Origin: Ralstonia pickettii
GTDB taxonomy: Bacteria > Pseudomonadota > Gammaproteobacteria > Burkholderiales > Burkholderiaceae
DNA: 64,000 nucleotides
NCBI RefSeq assembly: GCF_000607165.1
Contig: NZ_JFZG01000006.1
Location: 682,001 to 746,000, forward strand
Direction of reading: 5' to 3'
The translations under genes and the position numbers were made by a program. Every line of letters begins with the position of its first letter. Within the stretch, counting starts at the first letter, position 1. Under the pieces are notes generated by a model. That model searched no databases. It was not told the origin of the DNA and saw nothing but the letters and a program-made list of their open reading frames with translations. Positions 9,635 through 38,733 of this stretch are shown one piece after another.

Positions 9635-10303
9635 ATGCCCCAAGACCGCCACCTGATCCTTTACCACTCGCCGCGCAGCCGCTCGCGGGGCGCGCGCATG
9701 CTGCTCGAAGAACTCGGCGCCGACTACGAGGTGCATGCCTTCGACCTGACCACGGGCCAGCACAGGACGCCTGAGTTTCTCGCGATGAACCCGCTTGGCA
9801 AGGTGCCGACACTACGCCATGGCGATGCGGTCATCACCGAGCAGGTGGCGGTGTATCTGTATGCGGCAGAGCTGTATCCGGAAGCCGGGCTGTCGCCAGC
9901 CGTGGGCGATCCGCTGCGCGGGCCGTACCTGCGATGGATGGCGTTCTACGGTTCGTGTTTCGAGCCCGCTGTCGTCGACCATTCAATGGGCCGCGCGCCC
10001 GCTGCGTATTCGACCTCACCCTATGGCGACTTCGATACCGTCATTGCCGCGATCAACGCACAGTTGGCCAAAGGGCCCTACTTCCTCGGCGAGCGCTTCA
10101 CGGCGGCAGACGTCCTCTGGGGCGCCGCATTGGACTGGATCACGATGTTCAAACTGATGCCCGAGACGCCCGTGGTGCGCGCGTATATCGACCGCATCCT
10201 GGCACGGCCTGCGGTCCAGCGCGCACGGGCAGCGGACCTCGCGCTGGCGGAAGAACAGGACAAGGCCAAGGCGGCCGCCAGTACGGCCGCTCCCCAGGCC
10301 TGA
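9635..10303 (+). CDS. glutathione S-transferase family protein
   Basis: A 222-residue cytosolic GST. The thioredoxin-like N-domain (residues 1-80) has LILYHSPRSRSRGARMLLEEL with a Ser-rich active-site segment, the cis-proline motif GKVPTL, and the glutathione-contacting pair near ITEQVAVYLYAAE. The helical C-domain holds YFLGERFTAADV, the N-capping box of the GST fold. Substrates are unknown; such enzymes conjugate glutathione to electrophiles. The ATG at 9635 follows ACGGAGCCGACG. The gene is divergent from an AraC regulator and ends 8 bases before a converging chemoreceptor gene. Confidence 0.88.
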   Translation: MPQDRHLILYHSPRSRSRGARMLLEELGADYEVHAFDLTTGQHRTPEFLAMNPLGKVPTLRHGDAVITEQVAVYLYAAELYPEAGLSPAVGDPLRGPYLRWMAFYGSCFEPAVVDHSMGRAPAAYSTSPYGDFDTVIAAINAQLAKGPYFLGERFTAADVLWGAALDWITMFKLMPETPVVRAYIDRILARPAVQRARAADLALAEEQDKAKAAASTAAPQA

Positions 10304-10310
10304 GCCCGAT

Positions 10311-12140
10311 TCAGTGCGACAGGCGGAACTGCCCCACGGCCTCGTTCAGGTTGAGGGCCTGTTCTTCCAGCGACTCCGCAGCGGCCGCGGCCTGCTCGAC
10401 CAGCGCGGCGTTCTGCTGCGTCACCTGGTCCATCTGGTTGACGGCCTGGTTGACCTGCTCGATGCCGCTGCTCTGCTCTTCCGACGCTGACGAAATCTCG
10501 CCCATGATGTCGGTCACGCGCTTCACCGCATCGACGATCTCTGCCATCGTCACGCCGGCCTGATCAACCAGCGCCGTGCCGTTGCTCACACGATCCACCG
10601 AGTCGTGAATCAGCGCCTTGATTTCCTTCGCCGCGCCCGCCGAGCGCTGCGCCAGGCTGCGCACTTCGCTGGCCACCACCGCAAAGCCGCGGCCTTGCTC
10701 GCCGGCCCGCGCGGCTTCCACCGCAGCGTTCAGCGCCAGGATGTTGGTCTGGAACGCAATGCTCTCGATCACGCCGATGATGTCGGCGATCTTCTTGCTG
10801 CTCTCGTTGATGCCGCCCATGGTTTGCACCACCTGGCCGACCACGTTGCCGCCGCGCGTGGCAACGTCCGACGCCGTCACGGCAAGCTGGCTGGCCTGAC
10901 GCGCGTTATCGGCGTTCTGCTTCACGATGCTCGTGAGCTCTTCCATGCTCGACGCGGTTTCTTCCAGCGAGCTGGCTTGCTCTTCCGTGCGCTGCGAGAG
11001 GTCTGCATTGCCAGCGGCAATTTCTTGCGCCGCCGAGCGCACCGAATCGCTGCCCAGGCGGATCTGCTGCATCACCGCCGTCAGCTTGTCGGCAAACGTA
11101 TTGAACGAGCGGGCGATCTGCGCGACTTCGTCTTCGCCATCCGACAGCAGACGCTTGGTGAGGTCACCGCTGCCCGAGCCGATGTCGTCCATGGCATCGC
11201 GGATCATCGACAGGCGGCGGAACGCACGCGAAGTCATTGCGCCGACGATGAGCGCCGCCACGATGGCCACGCCCACCAGCGCGCCAATCGACGTCATCAC
11301 CAGTGAGCGCATGCCGGCCGTGGCATCAGACTTGTCCAGCGCCACCACCAGGCCCCAGTCGGTGCCCTTCACGCCCTGGCGGTAGAGCAGCTTGGATGCG
11401 CCATCCACTGACACTTCCACCGGCTTCTCCGCCTGCGCCAGCGATGCCAGCGTGGCTTCGTTCAGCCCTGCCGACAGATCGGTCGCCGGCTTGAGCGTGA
11501 GCTTGTCATTCGGGTGCGCGACGATCTTGCCGGCCGCGTTGACGAGGAAGCCGAAGCTGGCCGGCGTCGGGTGAATGGCCTTGACGTTGGCGATTACGCT
11601 GTCCATCGCCACGTCGCCGCCAATCACGCCCTTGAGGGTACTGCCGTCCAGAATGGGCACCGCGAAGGTCACGACGAGCTGGCCGGTGCTGGCGCTCACG
11701 TACGGCGGCGTCACCACGGGCTTGCCGGCCTCCACCGCCTGCTTGTACCAGGGGCGCGCAGTCGGGTCATACGTGGGCGGAATGCCTTCGGGGTTCGAGA
11801 ATTTGTACGACTTGTCGGGGTAGCCGACATAGACGTTGATGAAGCCGCCAGCCTTGTGCACGGCCTTGAAAACCGGAATCGGGTCCGCAGACACTGCCAC
11901 GTCTTGCAGCGACACCATCATCTGCGTCTTGGACGCCACCCAGTCGTCGATGCCGGCGATGTGGCCGCGCGCGACGGACTGCAGGTTCTGGCGGATGGAC
12001 TCGTCGTTGTACGAACGCGTCACGAGATAGTTAAGACCGCCAGCGAAGGTCAATGCGCCGACCACGATGGCAACGCAGGTCAGCAAAATGCGAGTACGGA
12101 TGGATGCAAGCACGGTATGGTTTCCTACTACGAGGCCCAT
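10311..12140 (-). CDS. methyl-accepting chemotaxis protein with dCache sensor
   Basis: A 609-residue transmembrane chemoreceptor. TM1 is at about residues 17-40. The periplasmic dCache_1 region follows to about 280 and includes [19 protein letters not shown] and [20 protein letters not shown], a pattern common in amino-acid or amine sensors. TM2 lies near 281-303, then HAMP and a long signalling coiled coil with the conserved tip [20 protein letters not shown]. There is no C-terminal NWETF-type pentapeptide for CheR/CheB tethering. The start is uncertain: ATG 12140 is used, but GTG 12115 has an AGGA sequence nearby and also precedes TM1. No che genes adjoin. Confidence 0.9.
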
Positions 12141-28837: not shown

Positions 28838-29179
28838 ATGACTCAAGATCCCACCTCTCAACGCAAGCAGCAAAACGCCGATGACTTCGCGCTCAACCGC
28901 GACGCCATCCGGTGGCTCGCGTCCCTGCCCGACCAGGTGAGGCCGATCGAACTTGGTCGGAAATTTCCGCGCATCATCAACACGATCGCCGCCAAGTGGG
29001 CCGATTTCATCGGCTGCCGGCGCTACCTGAACAGCCTGCAGATTGACGACCGGGGCGGCCGCCAAGGCTTCCCGTTCGAGATCGTCCAGGAGATCTGCGC
29101 GCTGCGCGAGTACTTCGATTCGCTGTATCCGCCAGACAAGGACCTTTGGCAGAAGGCCATCGACGCCAACAAGCGCTGA
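28838..29179 (+). CDS. conserved hypothetical protein, 113 residues
   Basis: A soluble, mostly helical 113-residue protein with no signal peptide. It contains RDAIRWLASLPDQVRPIELG, KFPRIINTIAAKWADF and a C-terminal acidic/aromatic segment (REYFDSLYPPDKDLW). Codon use matches the neighbours, and it is followed by a strong terminator, so I take it as a real monocistronic gene. Similar proteins occur in Burkholderiales as far as I recall, but no function is known to me. AAGGA lies 12 bases before the ATG. Confidence 0.65.
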   Translation: MTQDPTSQRKQQNADDFALNRDAIRWLASLPDQVRPIELGRKFPRIINTIAAKWADFIGCRRYLNSLQIDDRGGRQGFPFEIVQEICALREYFDSLYPPDKDLWQKAIDANKR

Positions 29180-29204
29180 AGCGCCCGCAGCCCGCACCAA
29201 AGCA

Positions 29205-29228
29205 AAGCGGCCCACTTTCGGGCCGCTT
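29205..29228. terminator. rho-independent terminator
   Basis: A 9-base perfect stem, AAGCGGCCC at 29205-29213 and its complement at 29220-29228, with a 6-base loop, followed by GTCATTT. It lies between the 113-residue gene (ends 29179) and the converging MarR gene (ends 29254). Confidence 0.8.
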
Positions 29229-29253
29229 GTCATTTGCACGGGCAGGCAGCAGA

Positions 29254-29769
29254 TCAGGAAGCGGAATCCGGCCCGGATGCCAGCTTGTTGAGCAGTGCCA
29301 GCAGCGTGTGCCGCTCATCCTTTGAAAGATGCGCTGTTACGCGGGCGTCGTGTGCGGTGACGGCGCGGGTGATTTCGTCGAGGGTGGTCGCACCCTTGGC
29401 AGTCAGCACAAGCCGGAACGCGCGCTTGTCCTTGGGCGACGGCTGCCGCTCGACCATGCCCATGTCTTCCAGCGTATCGACCAAGAGCACTGCACCGGAG
29501 CGCGCCACGCCCAAAATGCTGGCCAGCTCCGTCAGCTTGAGGTTCGGGTTATGCGCGATCACGGTCATGGCCGAGAAGCGCGGCGGCGTGATGTTCCACG
29601 CGTGCAGCGAGCGCACGAAATCTTCGTAGATGTGCAGCTGGGCGCGGCGCACGGCATAGCCGACCAGCCCGTCGAGCGCGCCATACTCCACGTCCGCCAG
29701 ATGCGGGTTGAAGTGCCCCGAAGGGGCCACGGCGGGATACAGGTCGTCGGCTTTGGGCGTGCGGGGCAT
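29254..29769 (-). CDS. MarR-family transcriptional regulator
   Basis: A 171-residue winged-helix repressor. The core spans about residues 25-150: the helix-turn-helix in KLTELASILGVARSGAVLLVDTLE, the wing in RQPSPKDKRAFRLVLTAKG, then a dimerisation helix. MarR proteins often bind aromatic acids, which fits the aromatic-type monooxygenase and binding protein encoded just upstream on the same strand. The ATG at 29769 is the first after the preceding gene's stop, 72 bases away, that suits the domain. It is probably the third gene of the unit monooxygenase-binding protein-MarR. Confidence 0.85.
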   Translation of the reverse strand: MPRTPKADDLYPAVAPSGHFNPHLADVEYGALDGLVGYAVRRAQLHIYEDFVRSLHAWNITPPRFSAMTVIAHNPNLKLTELASILGVARSGAVLLVDTLEDMGMVERQPSPKDKRAFRLVLTAKGATTLDEITRAVTAHDARVTAHLSKDERHTLLALLNKLASGPDSAS

Positions 29770-29841
29770 GGCGGTGTGGATGGGAAAGACCCCTCGATTA
29801 TCGTCGGCGACGCGCCCGCCGGCCATGCACGCGCGCGTGTT

Positions 29842-30975
29842 TCAGTTCAACAATTTCCACTTGCCGTGGTCGATGGTCAGCAGCACGCGGCCGCGCGCGT
29901 CAAAGCCAAAGTGATCCGTGGCCGTGTAGTTGAGCACGCCGTGCGAAACAACAATGTCGTGCTCCGATTCCAGCGCGCTCTTCAGCGCCTGGCGGAACTC
30001 GGGCGTGCCCGGCTTGGCCTTCTTGAGCGCCACCGGCACGATGCGCTGGAGCACCTGCAGCGCATCCCACGTGTGGGCGCCGAACTGCGTGCGCGTGTCG
30101 GGCCCGTTGGCCTTTTCATAGCGCGTCACGTATTCGAGGGCGGTCTTCTTGCTTGGGTGGCTGTCGGGCAATTGCTCGGCCACGATCACGGGGCCTGCCG
30201 GCAGGATGGCCCCGTCAACCGCCTTGCCGCCGATGCGGATCAGGTCTTTCGTTGCCGCGCCGTGCGTCTGATAGATCGGCCCCGCATAACCGCGATCGCG
30301 CAACGCGGTGTGCGGCAGCGCGGCGCCCGTGCCTGCACCTGCCACCAGGATCGCATCGGGCTTGATGCTGACCAGCTTGGCGACCTGCCCCGTCACGCTG
30401 GTGTCTGCGCGGGCATAGCGTTCCACGTCGACGATCTTGATGCCGCGCGGCGTGGCGGCCGCAGTGAAGTCCTTGAGCCAGCTCTCGCCGTACGCATCGG
30501 CAAAGCCGATGAAGCCGACGTTCTTGATGCCGGACGCCGCCATGCGCGCGGCAATCGCCTCGGCCATCAGCGAGATCGGCTGCGCAAGACGATAGGTCCA
30601 ATCGCCCTTGCCCGGCTTCAGCTCAACCGGCGCCAACGCCAGTTGCGGCGTGTGCGATTCGGTGGCGACTTCGGCAATCGCAATCGACGGTGCCACCGCC
30701 GACGAACCAACGATGATGTCGACATGGTCTTCCGTCACGAGCTTGCGTGCCAGGCGTGTGCCGGTGCTCGGATCGGACGCGTCATCCACCACCACGAGAC
30801 GCAGCTTTTCTCCGCCGATGGAATCCGGATAGAACGCCAGCGAGTTCTTCTGCGTGATGCCGAGCGACGCCGACGGCCCTGTCGTCGACAGGCTCACACC
30901 AACGACGATTTCGGCGTGGGCAGCGGTGGCGAGCAACAGCGCAGCAGCGGCGCAGATGGTGCGGCGGATGGTCAT
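29842..30975 (-). CDS. periplasmic substrate-binding protein, branched-chain amino acid/aromatic acid type
   Basis: A 377-residue exported type I periplasmic binding protein (Peripla_BP_6). A signal peptide covers residues 1-21 (MTIRRTICAAAALLLATAAHA). The mature part opens with EIVVGVSLSTTGPSASLGI, the classic LivJ-family start, and contains VDIIVGSSAVAPSIAIAEVA and NVGFIGFADAYGESWLKDF. Many members bind aromatic or dicarboxylic acids rather than leucine. No permease or ATPase gene lies in the window, so it must use another ABC transporter or act as a sensor. It is 45 bases downstream of the flavin monooxygenase gene and probably co-transcribed. Confidence 0.88.
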   Translation of the reverse strand: MTIRRTICAAAALLLATAAHAEIVVGVSLSTTGPSASLGITQKNSLAFYPDSIGGEKLRLVVVDDASDPSTGTRLARKLVTEDHVDIIVGSSAVAPSIAIAEVATESHTPQLALAPVELKPGKGDWTYRLAQPISLMAEAIAARMAASGIKNVGFIGFADAYGESWLKDFTAAATPRGIKIVDVERYARADTSVTGQVAKLVSIKPDAILVAGAGTGAALPHTALRDRGYAGPIYQTHGAATKDLIRIGGKAVDGAILPAGPVIVAEQLPDSHPSKKTALEYVTRYEKANGPDTRTQFGAHTWDALQVLQRIVPVALKKAKPGTPEFRQALKSALESEHDIVVSHGVLNYTATDHFGFDARGRVLLTIDHGKWKLLN

Positions 30976-31020
30976 GGGGCCCTCTTTTTCTCTCTTCTGG
31001 CGTGTGAACGTATCGGTGTT

Positions 31021-32286
31021 TCAGGCGCGGCCAGGCATGGGTGGCTGATCGCGCAGCGATTGCGGATCGAAGCCGGCCAGCTTTTTGTAGCGCATCGCAA
31101 TCCCTTCCAATTCCGAGCGCGGGATCACGTCATCGATGCGCGCGAAGCCTTGGGGCGCGCGCTCATGCGCGAGCTGCATGACCTGCTCCGGCCCGTTGAG
31201 GCGGTTGCGCAGCACGATGCCAGCTGTACGCGGCAGGCGATCAGCCTCGTACTCACGCAGGGCCACGCCGGTGTCGCGCGTGGCGAGCAGGCAATCGACC
31301 AACGCCCGCGCATCAAGAATCGCCTGCGCGCTGCCGTTCGAGCCGATCGGATACATCGGGTGTGCCGCGTCGCCCAGCAGCGTAGCGCGGCCGAAGGTCC
31401 AGCGTGGCAGCGGATCTTTGTCGACGAGCGGGAATTCGTACACGGCCTCTGCGCCGTCGATCAAAGCCGGGATGTCGATCCAACTCCATTTCCAGTCGGA
31501 GAAGGCGCTGCGGAAGATCGCGCGGTCGACCTCGCGGTTCCAGTCGCTGCGCGGCGGTGCCTCGTCGGGCACGCGCAGCTCGGCAATCCAGTTGATGCGC
31601 GAGCGGCCCTGCTGGCGTAGCGGTTCGGAGATCGGATAGGCGACGAATTTCTGATCTTGGTGGCCCGCCATGAACATGGTGCGTCCATCGAGATACGGCT
31701 CGGCTTCGGTGACGGCGCGCCACAACATGCGGCCCGCAAAACGCGGCGCATCGCCGCTCGGGTAGAAGTGCCGGCGTACGGCGGAGTGGATGCCATCGGC
31801 GCCGACCAGCACGTCGGCCGAGGATTCGACAACGGTGTCGTTGGTGCGATCACGCAGCGTGAAGCGCACGGGGCCGCCCTTCTCGCCCGTCGATTGAACC
31901 GCCTCGAAGCTGTGGCCAAGGCGGATGCAACCAGCGCCGAGGCGCTCGGTCACGGCATCGGCCAGGGCCATCTGGAATTCGCCACGGTGAATGGAGAACT
32001 GTGGCCAGTCGTAGCCTGCGGCCAGCCCGCGCGGCTCGTGCCAGATCGGCTGGCCGAAACGGTTGTAGTAAGCCAGCGCGGACGTCCGAATCGCGAGCGC
32101 ACTCAGCGTGTCTTCCAAGCCCAGTTCGCACAGCTGGCGCGCCGCGTGCGGCAGCAGGTTGATGCCAACGCCCAGTGGCCGCAGCGTCTGCACGGCCTCC
32201 CACACCTCAACCTCGAAACCTTGGCGCTCCGCCATCAACGCGAGCGTCAGGCCGCCGATGCCCGCCCCGATGATGGCGATCTTCAT
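31021..32286 (-). CDS. FAD-dependent monooxygenase (PhzS/salicylate hydroxylase-like)
   Basis: A 421-residue group A flavoprotein monooxygenase. The FAD-binding GAGIGG is at residues 7-12, the DG motif is in VLVGADGIHSAVRR, and the flavin-ribityl GD motif lies in TLLGDAAHPMYPIGSNG (near residue 305). Such enzymes hydroxylate, and sometimes ring-open, aromatic or N-heterocyclic acids with NAD(P)H and O2. The MYPIGSNGSAQAILDAR stretch resembles the PhzS branch. It is the first gene of the minus-strand arm, divergent from GntR, DUF2848, amidase and MFS genes. It is probably the first enzyme of an unassigned catabolic route. Confidence 0.85.
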   Translation of the reverse strand: MKIAIIGAGIGGLTLALMAERQGFEVEVWEAVQTLRPLGVGINLLPHAARQLCELGLEDTLSALAIRTSALAYYNRFGQPIWHEPRGLAAGYDWPQFSIHRGEFQMALADAVTERLGAGCIRLGHSFEAVQSTGEKGGPVRFTLRDRTNDTVVESSADVLVGADGIHSAVRRHFYPSGDAPRFAGRMLWRAVTEAEPYLDGRTMFMAGHQDQKFVAYPISEPLRQQGRSRINWIAELRVPDEAPPRSDWNREVDRAIFRSAFSDWKWSWIDIPALIDGAEAVYEFPLVDKDPLPRWTFGRATLLGDAAHPMYPIGSNGSAQAILDARALVDCLLATRDTGVALREYEADRLPRTAGIVLRNRLNGPEQVMQLAHERAPQGFARIDDVIPRSELEGIAMRYKKLAGFDPQSLRDQPPMPGRA

Positions 32287-32399
32287 GGCTGTCTCCCTGA
32301 AATTTGTTGCAGTCTATAACGAATCTCAACGGCATCCTGCCAACGACATATCAGGGCAAATACCTAGAAGAACGCGGCTGAATGCGGCGTGTTGCTCGC

Positions 32400-32429
32400 T
32401 TGACGCTCTGTGAGATATCACAATACCAT
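32400..32429 (+). promoter_or_regulatory. promoter of the GntR gene with a dyad between -35 and -10
   Basis: TTGACG at 32400-32405 and TACCAT at 32424-32429 form a plausible promoter (18-base spacer). The dyad TGTGA-GATA-TCACA at 32409-32422 fills the spacer. A dimer bound there would exclude RNA polymerase, so autoregulation by the GntR protein encoded 34 bases downstream is likely, perhaps with control of the divergent monooxygenase gene. Confidence 0.5.
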
Positions 32430-32462
32430 CACTCGACTTTTACAAAATTCGAGGCCGTCGCG

Positions 32463-33185
32463 ATGTCGCGTCCGATCAAGCTGGTTTCCGGTTCTGCCAA
32501 ACCCGCGTCTGCATCTGCACCGTTTGCCGTTGAACCCGACGCGCATGCGCCCAAGGGCGCCGCCATGCGTGAACTCGCCTACAACGAGATCAAGCGTCGC
32601 ATCATGGCGTGCGAATTCCGCCCCGGCGAGCCGCTCAACGAAGCGCAGCTCGGCACGATTCTGGGACTGGGCCGAACGCCGATCCACCAGGCGCTGCATC
32701 GTCTGGAGGTGGAGGGGCTGGTGCAGATCCTGCCGCGCAAGGGCGTGCTGGTGACGCCGCTGTCGCTCAACGACGTGCTCGACATGATCGAGGTGCGCGC
32801 CACCAACGAGATCCTGTGCGTGACGCTGGCCGCTGAGCGCGCCCACCCCGCCGATTTCGAGGCCATGCGTGCCATCGTCGATGCATCGCCCGCGCTGATC
32901 GAGCACCGCGACATTGCCGCGTTGGCCGCGCTGGACCTCAAGTTCCACCTCGCCATCTCCGCCGCCTCGCGCAACCGCGTGCTGGCCGAGTTGCTGCGCG
33001 GCCTGCACGAGAAGCAGGCGCGCTTCTGGTTCCTCTCGCTCTCAGAGCCGCAGCACCTGCAGAACGTGTACGACGAGCACCTTGCCGTGCTGGATGCGCT
33101 GGAGCGCCGCGACGTGCCCGCAGCGCGTGAAGCCATTCGCGAGCACATCGACGAGTTCCGCCGCACGATCATCCGCACGCTCTGA
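32463..33185 (+). CDS. GntR-family regulator, FadR/FCD subfamily
   Basis: A 240-residue regulator. An N-terminal tail of about 35 residues precedes the winged helix (LAYNEIKRRIMACEFRPGE, then LGRTPIHQALHRLEVEGLV, about 38-105). The helical FCD effector domain covers about 120-235 and contains LDLKFHLAISAASRN, where the metal-binding Asp and His of FCD proteins lie. FCD regulators usually respond to organic acids from catabolism. It is the first gene of the plus-strand arm, and the DUF2848 gene follows 46 bases later. Confidence 0.9.
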   Translation: MSRPIKLVSGSAKPASASAPFAVEPDAHAPKGAAMRELAYNEIKRRIMACEFRPGEPLNEAQLGTILGLGRTPIHQALHRLEVEGLVQILPRKGVLVTPLSLNDVLDMIEVRATNEILCVTLAAERAHPADFEAMRAIVDASPALIEHRDIAALAALDLKFHLAISAASRNRVLAELLRGLHEKQARFWFLSLSEPQHLQNVYDEHLAVLDALERRDVPAAREAIREHIDEFRRTIIRTL

Positions 33186-33231
33186 TCCCGATTTCCCTCC
33201 GTTCGTTTTTCCCGCTTCTTCCGGATTCCGC

Positions 33232-33909
33232 ATGACCACGCTGCACCTGAACCTGATCGGCCACGGCCCCATCGACGTGACCGTGGACCACCTTGTCATT
33301 GCCGGCTGGACCGGCCGCGATGCACAAGCTGTTGAACACCACATTGCTGAACTGGAAGCCATTGGCGTGGCGCGCCCGGCGCGTGTGCCGTGCTTCTACC
33401 GCGTGTCGGCCTCGCTGCTGACCACCGACGCCAGCGTGGAGATTCCCGGCGCAGATTCATCAGGCGAGGCGGAGTTCGTGCTGTATTCCACGCCGATGGG
33501 CCTGCTGGTCGGCATCGGCTCGGACCATACCGACCGCAAGGTCGAAGCCTATGGCGTGACGGTCTCCAAGCAGATGTGCGCCAAGCCCGTGAGCCGCGAC
33601 GTGTGGCGCTTCGACGCGCTCGCCGACCATTGGGACAACCTGCAGATGAAGACCTGGCGCACACGCGACGGCCAGACCGCGCTGTACCAGGAAGGCGGCG
33701 TCACGCGCATGCTCGACCCGCGCGACCTCATCCGCCGCTACACCGGCAACGACACGCTGCCGGTGGGCACCGCCATGTTCTGCGGCACGCAGCCCATCAT
33801 CGGCGAACTCGGTTTTGGCGAGGCCTTCGACATGGCCCTGATTGACCCGGTGTCGGGCACCGAGCTGCGCCATCGCTATGCTGTTGACACGCTGCCTGTT
33901 GAAGGCTGA
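33232..33909 (+). CDS. DUF2848 family protein (possible fumarylacetoacetate-hydrolase-like enzyme)
   Basis: A 225-residue cytosolic protein matching DUF2848, a family whose reaction is not established. It has EFVLYSTPMGLLVGIGSDHTDR (about residues 82-103), KQMCAKPVSRDVWRFDAL, and a GTAMFCGTQPIIG segment near 180. The layout is reminiscent of fumarylacetoacetate hydrolases, which cleave C-C bonds or isomerise diacids, but this link is inference. It sits between the GntR and amidase genes with short gaps (46 and 27 bases), so a catabolic role in the same route is likely. Confidence 0.75.
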   Translation: MTTLHLNLIGHGPIDVTVDHLVIAGWTGRDAQAVEHHIAELEAIGVARPARVPCFYRVSASLLTTDASVEIPGADSSGEAEFVLYSTPMGLLVGIGSDHTDRKVEAYGVTVSKQMCAKPVSRDVWRFDALADHWDNLQMKTWRTRDGQTALYQEGGVTRMLDPRDLIRRYTGNDTLPVGTAMFCGTQPIIGELGFGEAFDMALIDPVSGTELRHRYAVDTLPVEG

Positions 33910-33936
33910 AGCGCACCACCCAACGGAGACCACCGC

Positions 33937-35298
33937 ATGATGACGCCCCGCCCGAACATGATCCGCGCACTGGCCGCTGACCTGGCTGCCGGCCGCACCA
34001 CCAGCGTCGCGCTGACCGAAGCCGCGCTGGAGCGCGCCGAATCGCACCGCGCCGCTGGCGGTGCCGCCTATGTGAGCATCGACGTGCAAGCCGCGCTGGC
34101 CATGGCGCGCGCCGCCGATGCCGCGCGTGCGGCAGGCAACGTGCCCTCGCCGCTGGCGGGGTTGCCCGTGTCGATCAAGGATCTTTTTGACGTGGCCGGG
34201 CAGGTGACGGCAGCCGGTTCGCGCGCCCTGGCCCATCAGCCGCGCGCCACTGCTGATGCTGCTGCCGTTGCGCGCCTGCGTGCAGCCGGAGCAGTGCTGC
34301 TCGGCCGCACCAACATGAGCGAATTTGCGTTCTCGGGTCTTGGCCTGAACCCGCACTACGGCACGCCGCGCACGCCGGCGGACGGCGCGCGTGCGGCGGG
34401 CGGCTCCACGTCGGGCGGCGCCGTCACCGTTGCGGGCGGCATGGCCGTGGCGGCACTGGGCACGGACACCGGCGGCTCGATCCGCATTCCGGCGGCGTTC
34501 TGCAATCTGACCGGCTTCAAACCCACCGCGCGCCGTGTGCCGATGACGGGCGGCGTGCCGCTGTCCACGTCGCTCGATTCGGGCGGCCCGCTCACCAACT
34601 CGGTCGACTGCTGCGCCATCGTCGATGCCGTGCTGAGCGGCGAGTCGGGCAGCGACGCGTTCGACACCACCGCTGTGCCGCTGGCCGGATTGCGTTTGGG
34701 CATCACACAGGACTTTGTCGGTGCCGACCTCGACAACACGGTCGCCGTTGCATTCAACCGCGCCGTTGAACAGCTCGAACGTGCCGGTGCACACGTCGTG
34801 CGTTTTGAATTTCCAGAGCTGCTGAAACTGCCGGAGATCAACAGCGGCGGCGGCTTCTCGGCGGCGGAATCGTGGGCATGGCATCGCTCGCTGCTCGCGC
34901 GTGCGGAAACCCAGTACGACCCACGCGTCGCCACGCGCATCCGCCGTGGTGAGCAGATGAGCGCCGCTGCATACATCGACGTGATCAACGCACGCGCACG
35001 CATGATCGCCGCCGCACGCAAGCGTCTGGGCAACCTCGATGCATGGCTGATGCCGACGGTTGCCATCGTGCCACCCGAGGTCGCACCGCTCGAAGCGGAT
35101 GACGCGCAGTTCTTCCGCACCAATGCACTCACGCTGCGCAATCCAAGCGTGATCAATTTCCTGGACGGCTGCGCGCTGACGCTGCCGGTACACGCCGCCG
35201 GCGAACTGCCGGTCGGCCTGTCGCTCTGCGGTCTCGCCAACAACGACGCACGCATCCTGCGCGTTGGCCGGGCGGTGGAGGCTGCCCTGCGGCGTTGA
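33937..35298 (+). CDS. amidase (amidase-signature family)
   Basis: Hydrolyses a carboxylic amide to acid and ammonia. The 453-residue protein keeps the Ser-cisSer-Lys triad: Lys81 in PVSIKDLFD, Ser157 in GGSTSGG, and nucleophile Ser181 in TDTGGSIRIPA, with spacing as in the family. GatA is unlikely because there is no gatB or gatC and the context is catabolic. It follows DUF2848 by 27 bases and is separated from the MFS gene by a GC-rich hairpin. Its substrate is probably an open-chain amide intermediate or the transported compound itself. Confidence 0.92.
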   Translation: MMTPRPNMIRALAADLAAGRTTSVALTEAALERAESHRAAGGAAYVSIDVQAALAMARAADAARAAGNVPSPLAGLPVSIKDLFDVAGQVTAAGSRALAHQPRATADAAAVARLRAAGAVLLGRTNMSEFAFSGLGLNPHYGTPRTPADGARAAGGSTSGGAVTVAGGMAVAALGTDTGGSIRIPAAFCNLTGFKPTARRVPMTGGVPLSTSLDSGGPLTNSVDCCAIVDAVLSGESGSDAFDTTAVPLAGLRLGITQDFVGADLDNTVAVAFNRAVEQLERAGAHVVRFEFPELLKLPEINSGGGFSAAESWAWHRSLLARAETQYDPRVATRIRRGEQMSAAAYIDVINARARMIAAARKRLGNLDAWLMPTVAIVPPEVAPLEADDAQFFRTNALTLRNPSVINFLDGCALTLPVHAAGELPVGLSLCGLANNDARILRVGRAVEAALRR

Positions 35299-35318
35299 TC
35301 GACTAGCCAGAACATTCC

Positions 35319-35345
35319 CCGCCTGCGCCCGGGCCGCGCAGGCGG
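35319..35345 (+). terminator. GC-rich hairpin between amidase and MFS genes
   Basis: A perfect 10-base stem, CCGCCTGCGC at 35319-35328 and its complement at 35336-35345, with a 7-base loop followed by TTT. It may stop or attenuate transcription after the amidase gene, lowering expression of the transporter gene at 35464. Confidence 0.55.
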
Positions 35346-35463
35346 TTTCCCAAGCCAAGTCAAAAGGCGCGCTGCAGACGCGCCGGGCCCAACTCATGCC
35401 TGCGTTTCGTACAACACAGCAGCACACGAAGCGCTGGCCCCTCACACGCTATTGGAGGAAACC

Positions 35464-36786
35464 ATGTCGCAAACCCAAGCCCTGGCGGCTACCCCAACGG
35501 ACCCGGCCAGCCGCCCACTCCCCAGCGCCGAGCTGGATGTCACCTACCGGCGCATTGCGTACCGGCTGGTGCCGTTCCTGGTGGTGCTGTTCATCCTCGC
35601 CTGGATCGACCGCGTTAACGTCGGCTTCGCCAAGCTCTCGATGCTGCAGGACCTGCAGTTCAGCGAAGCAGTGTACGGCCTGGGTGCCGGCATCTTTTTC
35701 ATCGGTTACTTCCTGTTTGAAGTGCCGAGCAACCTGCTGTTGGAAAAGATCGGCGCACGCAAGACGCTGGCGCGCATCACCATCCTGTGGGGCCTGGCCT
35801 CGATGGCGATGATCTACGTAAAGACGCCCACCTCGTTCTACGTGATGCGCTTCCTGCTGGGCATTTTTGAAGCGGGTTTCTTCCCAGGCGTGGTGTTGTA
35901 TCTGACGTACTGGTTTCCCTCCGCACGCCGCGCACGCATCAATGGCCTGTTCATGACCTCGTTTGCGATTGCGGGCGTCGTGGGCGGCCCCGTTGCCGGC
36001 TTCATCATGAGCCGCATGGAAGGCGTGGGCCACCTCGCCAACTGGCAATGGCTGTTCCTGCTCGAAGGCATTCCGTCGGTGCTGGCCGGCTTTGCCGTGC
36101 TTGCGTGGCTGCCCGAAACGCCTCGCCAGGCCAAATGGCTTTCTGCTGCAGAACAAGACGCCGTCGTGCGCGCCGTTGAAGTGGAGAACCGCGACCCTGC
36201 CAAGCACGCCTCGTTTGGCGCCGCACTGGCCAACGCTCGCGTGTGGATCTGCGCAGCGATCTACTTCTGCGTGGTCAGCGGCAACGCCACCATTGCCTTC
36301 TGGACGCCGTCGATCATCAAAGAACTGGGCGTGCAGGGCAATTTCCACATCGGGCTGATCTCCGCCATTCCGTTCATCGCGGGCACGATTGCGATGGTGT
36401 GGAACGGCGCGCATTCCGATCGCACCGGCGAGCGCCGCATGCACTGCGCCATTGCGGCCGTCATCGCAGCCGCCGGCCTGGTCGCAACAGGCGCATTGCT
36501 CGGCTCGCCGGCGCTTGCGCTAATCTCGCTGACGGTCGCCGCCATCGGCATCCTCGCCGCGTTCCCGGTGTTCTGGTCGATCCCGGCCGTGTTCCTGGCC
36601 GGCACTGCAGCCGCAGGCGGCATCGCCCTCATCAACTCCATCGGCAACCTGGCCGGCTTCGTCGCGCCGTACATGATCGGCTGGTTGAAGACGAGCACAG
36701 GGCACCTCTCCGCCGGCCTCTACTTCGTAGCCGCGCTGGAGCTGGGCGCCGCCGTGCTGGTCATCCTGGGCACGCGCAAACACTAA
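35464..36786 (+). CDS. MFS transporter, anion:cation symporter family
   Basis: A 440-residue, 12-helix inner-membrane importer. The N-half has the ACS-family pattern IDRVNVGFAKLSMLQDLQFSE and FFIGYFLFEVPSNLLLEKIGAR, with the loop 2-3 motif. A cytoplasmic loop lies near residues 205-230. ACS members bring in tartrate, phthalate, 4-hydroxyphenylacetate, nicotinate and similar acids with protons. Being the last gene of the GntR-DUF2848-amidase arm, it probably imports the pathway substrate. The ATG at 35464 follows TTGGAGGAAACC; the frame start at 35452 is a TTG inside that ribosome-binding site. Confidence 0.9.
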   Translation: MSQTQALAATPTDPASRPLPSAELDVTYRRIAYRLVPFLVVLFILAWIDRVNVGFAKLSMLQDLQFSEAVYGLGAGIFFIGYFLFEVPSNLLLEKIGARKTLARITILWGLASMAMIYVKTPTSFYVMRFLLGIFEAGFFPGVVLYLTYWFPSARRARINGLFMTSFAIAGVVGGPVAGFIMSRMEGVGHLANWQWLFLLEGIPSVLAGFAVLAWLPETPRQAKWLSAAEQDAVVRAVEVENRDPAKHASFGAALANARVWICAAIYFCVVSGNATIAFWTPSIIKELGVQGNFHIGLISAIPFIAGTIAMVWNGAHSDRTGERRMHCAIAAVIAAAGLVATGALLGSPALALISLTVAAIGILAAFPVFWSIPAVFLAGTAAAGGIALINSIGNLAGFVAPYMIGWLKTSTGHLSAGLYFVAALELGAAVLVILGTRKH

Positions 36787-36854
36787 GCACTTACGCAAAC
36801 GAAGCATCGTGGCGCCAACCTCAGCGCCGCGATGGTTTGGCCGTACCCTGCCCT

Positions 36855-36970
36855 AGATGGCGCCTTGAATTTCTGTAAGCGGGCGGAAACAAGAAGGAGA
36901 CCTGTCTGAGCGAAGCGAGTTTGCCTCCTTCTCCGCCCGGTTACAGAAATTCAAGGAGAAGTCGCCATCT
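36855..36970. repeat. long imperfect inverted repeat (REP/MITE-like element)
   Basis: A non-coding element whose ends fold onto each other. AGATGGCG at 36855-36862 pairs with CGCCATCT at 36963-36970, TTGAATTTCTGTAA with its near-complement ending at 36953, GGGCGGA with TCCGCCC, and GAAGGAG with CTCCTTC toward the centre. The tip contains GAGCGAAGCGAG. There is no transposase frame. It resembles dispersed intergenic elements I recall from Ralstonia and Burkholderia, but copy number cannot be judged from one window. Confidence 0.75.
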
Positions 36971-36988
36971 CGGGTGCGCCTTTCTTTG

Positions 36989-37020
36989 CTTACTTTCTTT
37001 GGCAAGACAAAGAAAGTGAG
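36989..37020. repeat. 13-bp inverted repeat, second hairpin of the repeat element
   Basis: CTTACTTTCTTTG at 36989-37001 pairs with 37008-37020, with one G-T wobble and a 6-base loop. It lies 18 bases after the larger inverted repeat and seems to belong to the same composite element. The following 37021-37171 contains no gene or structure I can name. Confidence 0.7.
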
Positions 37021-37171
37021 TCAGCCCCGGCAGGGGATGAAACAAGGAATGCACCAGCAACAAAAAAAACCCGCGAGCAAAGTCAAAAACCCCACGCGCG
37101 AAGTTCCCTCCCCCCCGACGTTGCGAACCCCATCAGCGAAGTTCGGAACATCAACCCTGCAGTTGCGGACT

Positions 37172-38584
37172 CTAGCCCGCCACCTTGTACCCCATCCGAA
37201 CGCCACCCCAGTGGCGGCCTTTGACGTAAATCGGCGCCGACACATCCTTCATCATCGCAAACGTCCCGTTCCCCATATCGCGACGATACGTCTGCAACAA
37301 AAATGCCTCGGTATTGCGCGCCGCCCCGAGTCCCGTCCTATCGGTGAACAGCCGACGGTTACGGCTGTTGGCAGCATTCCAGGCTGGATCGCTGCCCTGC
37401 GGCTGGGAGAACTTCAGGTTGTGCGTCGGCAGATAGCCATTGGTGTCCACCGCCGCACAAAACACCACGCGAGGATCAAGCTGAAGCAAAGGCTCCTGCA
37501 CCGCAGGCAGCACGCGATCCGTGAACACCGTAAACCGCGCCATATGCTGCGGCGGATCGGTATTCGGCACCGGCTCATAGGCGCGGTCGAACAAGTCGCC
37601 CTCGCTGATATCGCCCCGCGCCAGCGCCGATTCAAACAGCGCACTGATCTTGCCAGCTGCGGTCTGCACCGCTTCGATGAACGGCGTATCGGCGCTCTGC
37701 ACACCGGTTGACGCCGTCAACCGGATCAACGTTTCCGACGCCCCCAGCAACCCGGAAAGCTGCCGTTGCGCGTTGTCGATGTTGTGGCTCGATTGCTTCA
37801 CACCCTCGGCCATCGCATCCACCTCACGTGCAAGCGACGCGCATTCGCCTTCAATGGCGGCAGTGGATTCCGCAATGCTCGTCGCCTCAACGTCAAAGCG
37901 CGCGATGGCCTCGCCAGCCACGCCAATCACCGCACCAATCGCCTGCGTGCCGGTATCCACACGCTGGGCGCGTGCCACGTTCGCACTGCTGTCGCCGATC
38001 AACTTGTCGGTCTGGCCGGACAAATCCGCCAAGGTGGTTTCGATACGCTGCGTCGCTTCGGCGGTCTGGCCTGCGAGCTGCTTCACAGCACCCGCAACGA
38101 CGGCAAAGCTGCGGCCCGATTCACCCGCGCGCGCGGCTTCAATGGCGGCGTTGATCGCCAGCAGATTGGTCTGCCTGGCAATCTGCGAAATCTGCTCGGA
38201 TGCCTGCGCCACGTGGATGAGCGCCTCACGCAGCGCAGCAATCTGCTGCTCCATGCTCGCCACGCCAACGGCAAGCTCGCGAATGTCGCGCAGCGATGCA
38301 TCGACCGTTGCACGCGAGCCGCTCACCTCCTCGCTGGCATGCGAGGCGACTTCACGCGCATGCCGCGCTGCCACAGCGATGTCGTGGTTGCCGCGCATGG
38401 TGACGTCGGCAGCATTGCGCAACTGATCGAACACATCGGCCTGCCGGCGCAGCCGCACGGCCACGTCTTCCACATTGCCGGACACTTCGCAGATGCCCAT
38501 GCCCACGCGGCCGGCCTCTTCGGCAATACGGGCGACAAGTTCGGGAGGGGCTTTCGGGCCGCGGCCCCAGGCAAATGGCTTCAC
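37172..38584 (-). CDS. soluble methyl-accepting chemotaxis-type protein with C-terminal sensor region
   Basis: A 470-residue cytoplasmic chemoreceptor-like protein without membrane helices. Residues 60-300 form the signalling coiled coil with the receptor tip [21 protein letters not shown] and [14 protein letters not shown]. Residues 330-470 form an alpha/beta, Cache-like region ([33 protein letters not shown], and the end [11 protein letters not shown]), so the usual sensor-then-signal order is reversed. Translation probably starts at GTG 38584 with CTGGAGA upstream; the ATG-led extension to 38686 adds unconserved residues. No che genes adjoin, but a GGDEF-EAL gene lies upstream on the same strand. 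Confidence 0.85.
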
Positions 38585-38733
38585 GTGCGGTGGTCTCCAG
38601 ATGTCGTTGTTGTGTGTGCGCTCGCGCTGATGGCGAAGCAACCCTCTGTGGGGAGTATCGGCGCGGGCGGTCCGCGCTTGAGCCACGCTACCCGCCCCGG
38701 CTTACGCGGGCATTACATGCGCCTTGCGCAGCA

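What the first reader, a model, noticed from the sequence alone, without database searches (positions are those of the whole stretch)
29254..36786. Unassigned divergent catabolic module: flavin monooxygenase + DUF2848 + amidase with two regulators, a binding protein and an MFS importer
Seen: minus-strand genes for a PhzS/salicylate-hydroxylase-like FAD monooxygenase, a LivJ-type binding protein and a MarR regulator, divergent from GntR/FCD, DUF2848, amidase and ACS-type MFS genes, tightly spaced. Known: flavin monooxygenases of this group hydroxylate or ring-open aromatic and N-heterocyclic acids, and amidases finish pyridine-type routes by releasing ammonia. Inference: import by MFS, oxidation or ring opening by the flavoprotein, hydrolysis by DUF2848 and amidase. 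DUF2848 has no established reaction, so this locus may define it. The substrate is unknown.
Basis: partly seen in the sequence, partly recalled or inferred. Interest (0 to 1): 0.75.

Follow-up and report, generated by a model that had tools for sequence, protein, structure and literature searches.

The report
Two catabolic operons sharing one promoter region
Seven neighbouring genes read as one pathway turn out to be two separately conserved and apparently separately regulated gene sets placed back to back, and one of them encodes an uncharacterised protein (DUF2848) that by predicted fold and active-site residues is a fumarylacetoacetate-hydrolase-type enzyme working next to an amidase on a still unknown compound.

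Summary
The seven genes are there as described, in a Ralstonia. They are not one module but two conserved units, back to back. Unit A (PhzS-like FMO, orphan LivJ-type binding protein, MarR) stands alone in 14 of 14 Cupriavidus FMO loci read. Unit B (GntR, DUF2848, amidase, MFS) stands without a flavin monooxygenase in Cupriavidus and Pseudomonas. Each has its own operator-like site in the 176-bp intergenic region; each pattern occurs once in the 5.75-Mb genome. The GntR-type site recurs in 28 of 48 distinct DUF2848 loci with a GntR gene and in 0 of 89 without. DUF2848 is predicted, at high confidence, to have the fumarylacetoacetate hydrolase (FAH) fold with counterparts of the metal and His-Glu residues, so metal-dependent C-C hydrolysis or tautomerisation of a 2-oxo acid is the likeliest chemistry; no activity is shown. 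Outside Ralstonia an amidase lies nearby in 36 of 49 loci against 1 of 40 control regions, a flavin monooxygenase in 12 of 49 against 0 of 40. "Oxidise, then hydrolyse" is thus plausible for the family, but this FMO's part in it is not shown. The substrate remains unknown.

The parts
29254..29826 (-). Unit A: MarR-family regulator
   Evidence: PF01047 53 bits; found beyond LivJ in 14 of 14 Cupriavidus FMO loci read
29842..30975 (-). Unit A: LivJ-type periplasmic binding protein with signal-like N terminus; no permease or ATPase gene beside it among the seven
   Evidence: PF13458 136 bits; signal-like N terminus by eye
31021..32286 (-). Unit A: single-component FAD monooxygenase, PhzS-like (NCBIfam PRK07538)
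   Evidence: GAGIGG, DGIHS, GDAAH motifs
32304..32320 (-). Unit A: MarR-type operator-like site GTTATAGACTGCAACAA, 18-34 bp upstream of the FMO start
   Evidence: pattern occurs once in the genome; the core GTTATA-N6-AACAA is found once, next to the FMO start, in 16 of 16 loci L266-L281
32400..32429 (+). Unit B: sigma-70-like promoter TTGACG-18-TACCAT
   Evidence: only promoter-like site found in 29000-37200, but shuffles give 0.7 on average; the better evidence is its conservation in 11 of 11 Ralstonia loci aligned
32410..32421 (+). Unit B: GntR-type operator-like site GTGAGATATCAC inside the promoter spacer
   Evidence: GTGANATATCAC occurs once in 5.75 Mb; recurs at DUF2848 loci with GntR in other genera
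32463..33185 (+). Unit B: GntR/FCD regulator
   Evidence: PF00392 + PF07729
33232..33909 (+). Unit B: DUF2848, predicted FAH-fold metal enzyme; catalytic-site counterparts G28 R29 H37 E40 E79 E81 D98 K113, with E105 where FAHD1 has Gln
   Evidence: FAHD1 residues from a passage of PMC7056447
33937..35298 (+). Unit B: amidase-signature hydrolase (NCBIfam PRK07056)
   Evidence: 686 bits against cut-off 447; Lys80-Ser156-Ser180 by motif position (catalytic roles recalled)
35464..36786 (+). Unit B: MFS transporter, nearest HpaX / TIGR00893 models
   Evidence: PF07690 156 bits; 331 and 326 bits, below those two models' cut-offs

Best explanation
Two transcription units stand head to head, each apparently controlled by the regulator it encodes. 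Unit B (gntR, DUF2848, amidase, MFS) is a self-contained uptake-and-hydrolysis cassette: MFS brings in a small acid that carries, or gains, an amide or lactam; DUF2848, a metal-dependent FAH-fold enzyme (metal at Glu79/Glu81/Asp98, water activated by His37-Glu40, Lys113), acts on its 2-oxo/enol group by C-C hydrolysis or tautomerisation; the amidase releases ammonia; GntR represses from GTGAGATATCAC inside the promoter. Unit A (FMO, binding protein, MarR) oxidises an aromatic or heteroaromatic compound under a MarR site. In Ralstonia the FMO may feed unit B, as flavin monooxygenases may do in other DUF2848-amidase clusters. Shown by computation: gene content, separability, the sites, the predicted fold and the conserved residues. 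Inferred: the reactions, their order, repression, which regulator binds which site. Unknown: the substrate.
Against: No activity is known; fold and residues do not fix the reaction. The counterpart of FAHD1 Gln109 is invariably Glu105 and I saw no counterpart of Lys47, so FAHD1 chemistry may not carry over. G144 keeps an intact amidase frame without DUF2848, so the amidase need not act after it. Of 49 loci outside the genus, 13 have no detected amidase and 37 no flavin monooxygenase in the stretch read. The exact GntR site is missing in 20 of 48 distinct GntR-bearing loci; of 14 loci without it that were examined, 6 have a one-mismatch form and 8 none. The promoter match alone is no better than chance (1 found, 0.7 expected). 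Repression is inferred from position only. Neighbour profiles were built from DUF2848 loci, which favours finding them there.
Confidence: 0.6

Rival explanations
1. One seven-gene pathway, as first read: MFS or binding-protein uptake, FMO oxidation or ring opening, DUF2848 and amidase finishing, with both regulators serving one pathway.
For: The full order is conserved in 10 other Ralstonia loci; other DUF2848-amidase loci carry HpaB-type or MhpA-like flavin monooxygenases; tree neighbours L145-L147 of the window's clade have HpaB or FMO plus cupin plus amidase; G144 lost gntR and DUF2848 but kept FMO and amidase side by side.
Against: FMO-LivJ-MarR stands apart in 14 of 14 Cupriavidus loci read, and 9 of 19 FMO-bearing Cupriavidus genomes have no DUF2848 hit; each unit has its own conserved site.
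Confidence: 0.25
2. DUF2848 is a lactamase or cyclic-imide hydrolase: it opens a C-N bond of a small oxo-lactam and the amidase hydrolyses the resulting amide, as HxnM and HxnN do in fungal nicotinate breakdown.
For: Frequent partnership with an amide hydrolase (amidase, or a nitrilase-type hydrolase in annotated loci L127, L128, L130); one sublineage lies beside a DUF1445 hydro-lyase and, in L195, 5-oxoprolinase-type genes; the HxnM-HxnN order (passages of PMC9304392).
Against: No FAH-fold lactamase is known to me (recalled, not searched); the conserved residues match C-C hydrolase and tautomerase chemistry.
Confidence: 0.2
3. DUF2848 is a tautomerase or repair enzyme that removes an off-path enol, not a committed pathway step.
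For: FAHD enzymes tested from animals, a plant, yeast, bacteria and an archaeon had enol-oxaloacetate tautomerase activity (passages of PMC10825186).
Against: Occurrence in cassettes with transporter, regulator and amidase argues for a pathway step; Gln109 is replaced by Glu.
Confidence: 0.15

Closest known systems
FAH-superfamily acylpyruvases: FAHD1, fumarylpyruvate hydrolase (6j5y), Cg1458
   Different: Only weak sequence similarity (PF01557 below cut-off); Glu105 in place of Gln109; 3 extra residues between GR and H; SDHTDR and SKQ.C motifs; amidase partner
Aspergillus nidulans hxn nicotinate regulon (HxnX/HxnV, HxnM, HxnN)
   Same: Flavin monooxygenases, a ring-opening hydrolase and an amidase that frees ammonia (passages of PMC9304392)
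   Different: HxnM is a cyclic imidase resembling a peptidoglycan deacetylase, not FAH fold; fungal
HpaBC-type two-component hydroxylase clusters
   Same: L145 reads MarR-like (divergent), then HpaB, flavin reductase, DUF2848, cupin, amidase
   Different: HpaB of L145 is below the 4-hydroxyphenylacetate model cut-offs (297 of 480); the window genome has no PF03241 match
PhzS (2rgj, 3c96; name recalled)
   Same: FMO aligns over residues 3-369 at about 300 bits
   Different: Neighbours are a binding protein and MarR; phenazine genes were not looked for

Membership tests
FAH superfamily (DUF2848) | FAH fold | tested here: met
   predicted model
FAH superfamily (DUF2848) | Metal triad E-x-E and D | tested here: met
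   E79, E81, D98 in 67 of 67 rows; D98 aligned to the FAH Asp by hhalign, while the E-x-E register there is off by one or two; ligand geometry not measured
FAH superfamily (DUF2848) | His-Glu dyad and catalytic Lys of FAHD1 | tested here: met
   H37, E40, K113 in 67 of 67 rows against PMC7056447; assignment by motif and spacing, not by superposition; Lys register off by about two
FAH superfamily (DUF2848) | Gln at the FAHD1 Gln109 place | tested here: not met
   E105 in 67 of 67 rows; a FAHD1/Cg1458 feature, not known to define the superfamily
Pfam PF01557 FAA_hydrolase | Curated gathering score | tested here: not met
   18.1 bits against 23.9: same predicted fold, but outside this sequence family
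FAH superfamily (DUF2848) | Metal-dependent C-C hydrolase, decarboxylase or tautomerase activity | not testable with these tools
   needs purified protein
Amidase PRK07056 | Curated score and Ser-Ser-Lys motifs | tested here: met
   686 bits against 447; motifs at 79, 154, 174
PRK07538 flavin monooxygenases | Curated score | tested here: met
   622 bits against 400
PhzS (phenazine pathway) | Phenazine biosynthesis genes nearby | not tested
   not searched
HpaX 4-hydroxyphenylacetate permease | TIGR02332 curated score | tested here: not met
   331 bits against 615

The most novel reading that the evidence does not exclude
DUF2848 founds a new FAH-fold enzyme class: with Glu105 in place of the usual Gln it acts on amide- or lactam-bearing 2-oxo acids (ring opening or C-C cleavage), and with an amidase forms a portable nitrogen-releasing core that lineages attach to different flavin monooxygenases or transporters, kept under one GntR/GTGANATATCAC switch across genera.
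Probability: 0.25. Interest if true: 0.7.

Novelty: new variant of a known kind. Interest (0 to 1): 0.5.

Why it matters
PF11010 is still annotated as unknown function in the Pfam copy used and has no paper in the library searched. Placing it in the FAH fold with named catalytic residues, a frequent amidase partner and a defined operator candidate makes its reaction directly testable, and would let DUF2848 loci in many bacteria (and, by one tblastn hit, a haloarchaeon) be re-annotated. It also warns that divergent neighbours can be two regulons, not one pathway.

Tried and rejected
Pyrrole-2-carboxylate or alpha-ketoglutaramate route as the substrate: attractive beside 5-oxoprolinase-type genes in one sublineage, but the term searches gave 0 papers and 9 papers of which only the listing was read, most on nicotine or nicotinate (one of them, PMC9304392, was later read in passages); nothing in the window supports it. 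Kept only as one version of a rival.

4-Hydroxyphenylacetate as substrate (from HpaX and HpaB resemblance): both lie far below the curated scores, and the window genome has no HpaB match.

Direct PDB sequence search for DUF2848: 3 chance-level hits singly; with the profile, 4 of the 5 best hits are FAH chains but at E 0.08-0.85, so only suggestive.

Enrichment near DUF2848 was not significant for TRAP (p 0.06) and Liv-type binding proteins (p 0.08), and for the PhzS/MhpA-type FMO profile alone it was 2 of 51 against 0 of 40, p 0.31; the flavin link rests on HpaB-type enzymes. The 51 loci still held two loci of Ralstonia (L064, L065); without them the counts are those (49 loci; any flavin monooxygenase 12, p 3.9e-4). 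Eight of the 40 control regions are from Ralstonia.

Tree: a quick one, 32 of 101 inner branches open; 13 changes of flavin-monooxygenase presence cannot tell gain from loss. Literature for a matching HpaB/cupin/amidase/FAH cluster: 1 paper, on Fusarium transcriptomics, listing only; for a PhzS-like/MarR unit: 0.

Full report
What is there. The seven genes are confirmed at the stated places, with intact frames and clear family matches, and gaps of 15, 45, 176, 46, 27 and 165 bp. The window lies at G000:C6:682001-746000 of a 5.75-Mb genome. The best named relative of its DUF2848 is from Ralstonia sp. A12, 96% identical; same-genus genome G087 has a contig whose length equals one of Ralstonia soli. 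The species was not determined.

One module or two. All seven genes recur in order in nine further same-genus loci (L060-L063, L066-L070) and in L134. DUF2848 is in 15 of 16 and a close FMO orthologue in 16 of 16 genus genomes, and wherever both occur they lie within about 2.3 kb. Outside the genus they part. I read 14 of those 19 FMO loci: in 14 of 14 the LivJ-type protein and MarR follow the FMO, and none shows DUF2848, GntR or the amidase within the 18 kb. Conversely the GntR-DUF2848-amidase-MFS cassette has no HpaB- or FMO-profile match in the stretches read of L071-L073, L108, L116, L135-L144, L148 and L149.

Two switches. The 176-bp intergenic region holds two operator-like sites. GTGAGATATCAC (32410-32421) sits in the spacer of the one promoter-like site found between 29000 and 37200; shuffles give 0.7 such sites on average, so the match alone means little, but the block is conserved in 11 of 11 Ralstonia loci aligned, with small changes at the site in three. 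The pattern GTGANATATCAC occurs once in the genome, its reversed control zero times. Among DUF2848 loci the pattern (either strand, within 3 kb) is in 30 of 50 with a detected GntR and 1 of 104 without; that one, L121, has an annotated GntR, and 14 of the 104 were plasmid loci not scanned for GntR. After removal of duplicates and plasmid loci it is in 28 of 48 with GntR and 0 of 89 without; without the ten seven-gene Ralstonia loci 18 of 38; among representatives under 90% identity 15 of 32 and 0 of 72. The 40 control regions held 1 match in 720 kb. Of 14 loci without the exact site that I examined, 6 have a one-mismatch form: L135, L137, L138 and L140 (two each, one by each divergent gene), L142 and L159; 8 have none. 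The second site, GTTATAGACTGCAACAA (32304-32320), also occurs once in the genome under the pattern used; its core is found once, next to the FMO start, in 16 of 16 loci L266-L281; in L268 and L275 it reads TTGTTATACTCCATAACAA, a palindrome, with variants elsewhere. Which regulator binds which site is inferred from linkage. One genus genome, G144, lacks gntR, DUF2848 and MFS but keeps the FMO unit, its site and an intact amidase frame; its GntR-type site has one change. This fits separate control, but also shows that the amidase can persist without DUF2848.

Partners. Sixty whole-genome DUF2848 loci were scanned against 40 regions taken from arbitrary places in the same genomes. With the nine seven-gene loci set aside (51 left), an amidase is present in 37 against 1 of 40, small cupin 16 against 0, flavin reductase 14 against 0, HpaB-type oxygenase 13 against 0, any flavin monooxygenase 14 against 0. 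With all Ralstonia loci out (49 left) the counts are 36, 14, 12, 11 and 12 (last: Fisher p 3.9e-4). In 80 named loci, chosen by the search for similarity to the query, amidase is in 55 and any flavin monooxygenase in 30. Among 103 representatives under 90% identity, amidase is in 77 and a flavin monooxygenase in 33. The flavin monooxygenases are of three kinds: HpaB-type, MhpA-like and, in Ralstonia, PhzS-like. Three annotated plasmid loci (L127, L128, L130) show a nitrilase-type hydrolase near DUF2848 and no annotated amidase, in gene tables that are incomplete. On a quick tree of 104 rows the window's clade of 19 rows, 13 of them with GntR and MFS, is next to L145-L147 and L151 (support 89), three of which have a flavin monooxygenase. 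So flavin chemistry belongs to part of the wider family and may have been lost in this clade, and perhaps re-supplied in Ralstonia by unit A; that last step is conjecture.

How it most likely works. Unit B imports an acid, DUF2848 acts on its 2-oxo/enol part, the amidase frees ammonia, and GntR switches the operon; unit A oxidises an aromatic or heteroaromatic compound under MarR. A known parallel for oxygenase, ring opening and amidase is the Aspergillus nicotinate pathway (passages of PMC9304392), whose ring-opening enzyme resembles another family. The substrate is unknown and I do not think it can be read from the sequence.

Noticed in passing
L281 (G144), 10240-11930: A same-genus genome lacks gntR, DUF2848 and MFS, keeps FMO-LivJ-MarR and an intact amidase frame, and has one change in the GntR-type site.
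   Followed up: partly
L195:4060-13276 and relatives (e.g. L083, L170, L213): DUF2848-amidase beside a DUF1445-type hydro-lyase and TRAP transporter; in L195 also LamB/YcsF and both carboxyltransferase-domain proteins, the parts of 5-oxoprolinase PxpABC (names recalled).
   Followed up: partly
L147:6740-7981 and ten other loci: A cysteine-desulfurase-like protein (IscS in L147, the only one scanned) lies near DUF2848 in 11 loci; in L147 it sits in line between an FMO and DUF2848. No explanation.
   Followed up: no
L064, L065, L066 (G087): One Ralstonia genome has three DUF2848 loci, two with HpaB-type enzyme and cupin and one of the window's type, suggesting different substrates.
   Followed up: no
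L145, L146, L162, L173: A small cupin of about 127 aa (Cupin_7 in L162) accompanies DUF2848 and flavin monooxygenases; role unknown.
   Followed up: partly
window 37172-38686: A chemotaxis-receptor-like protein (by eye, no search run) follows the MFS gene on the other strand; possibly a sensor of the same compound.
   Followed up: no
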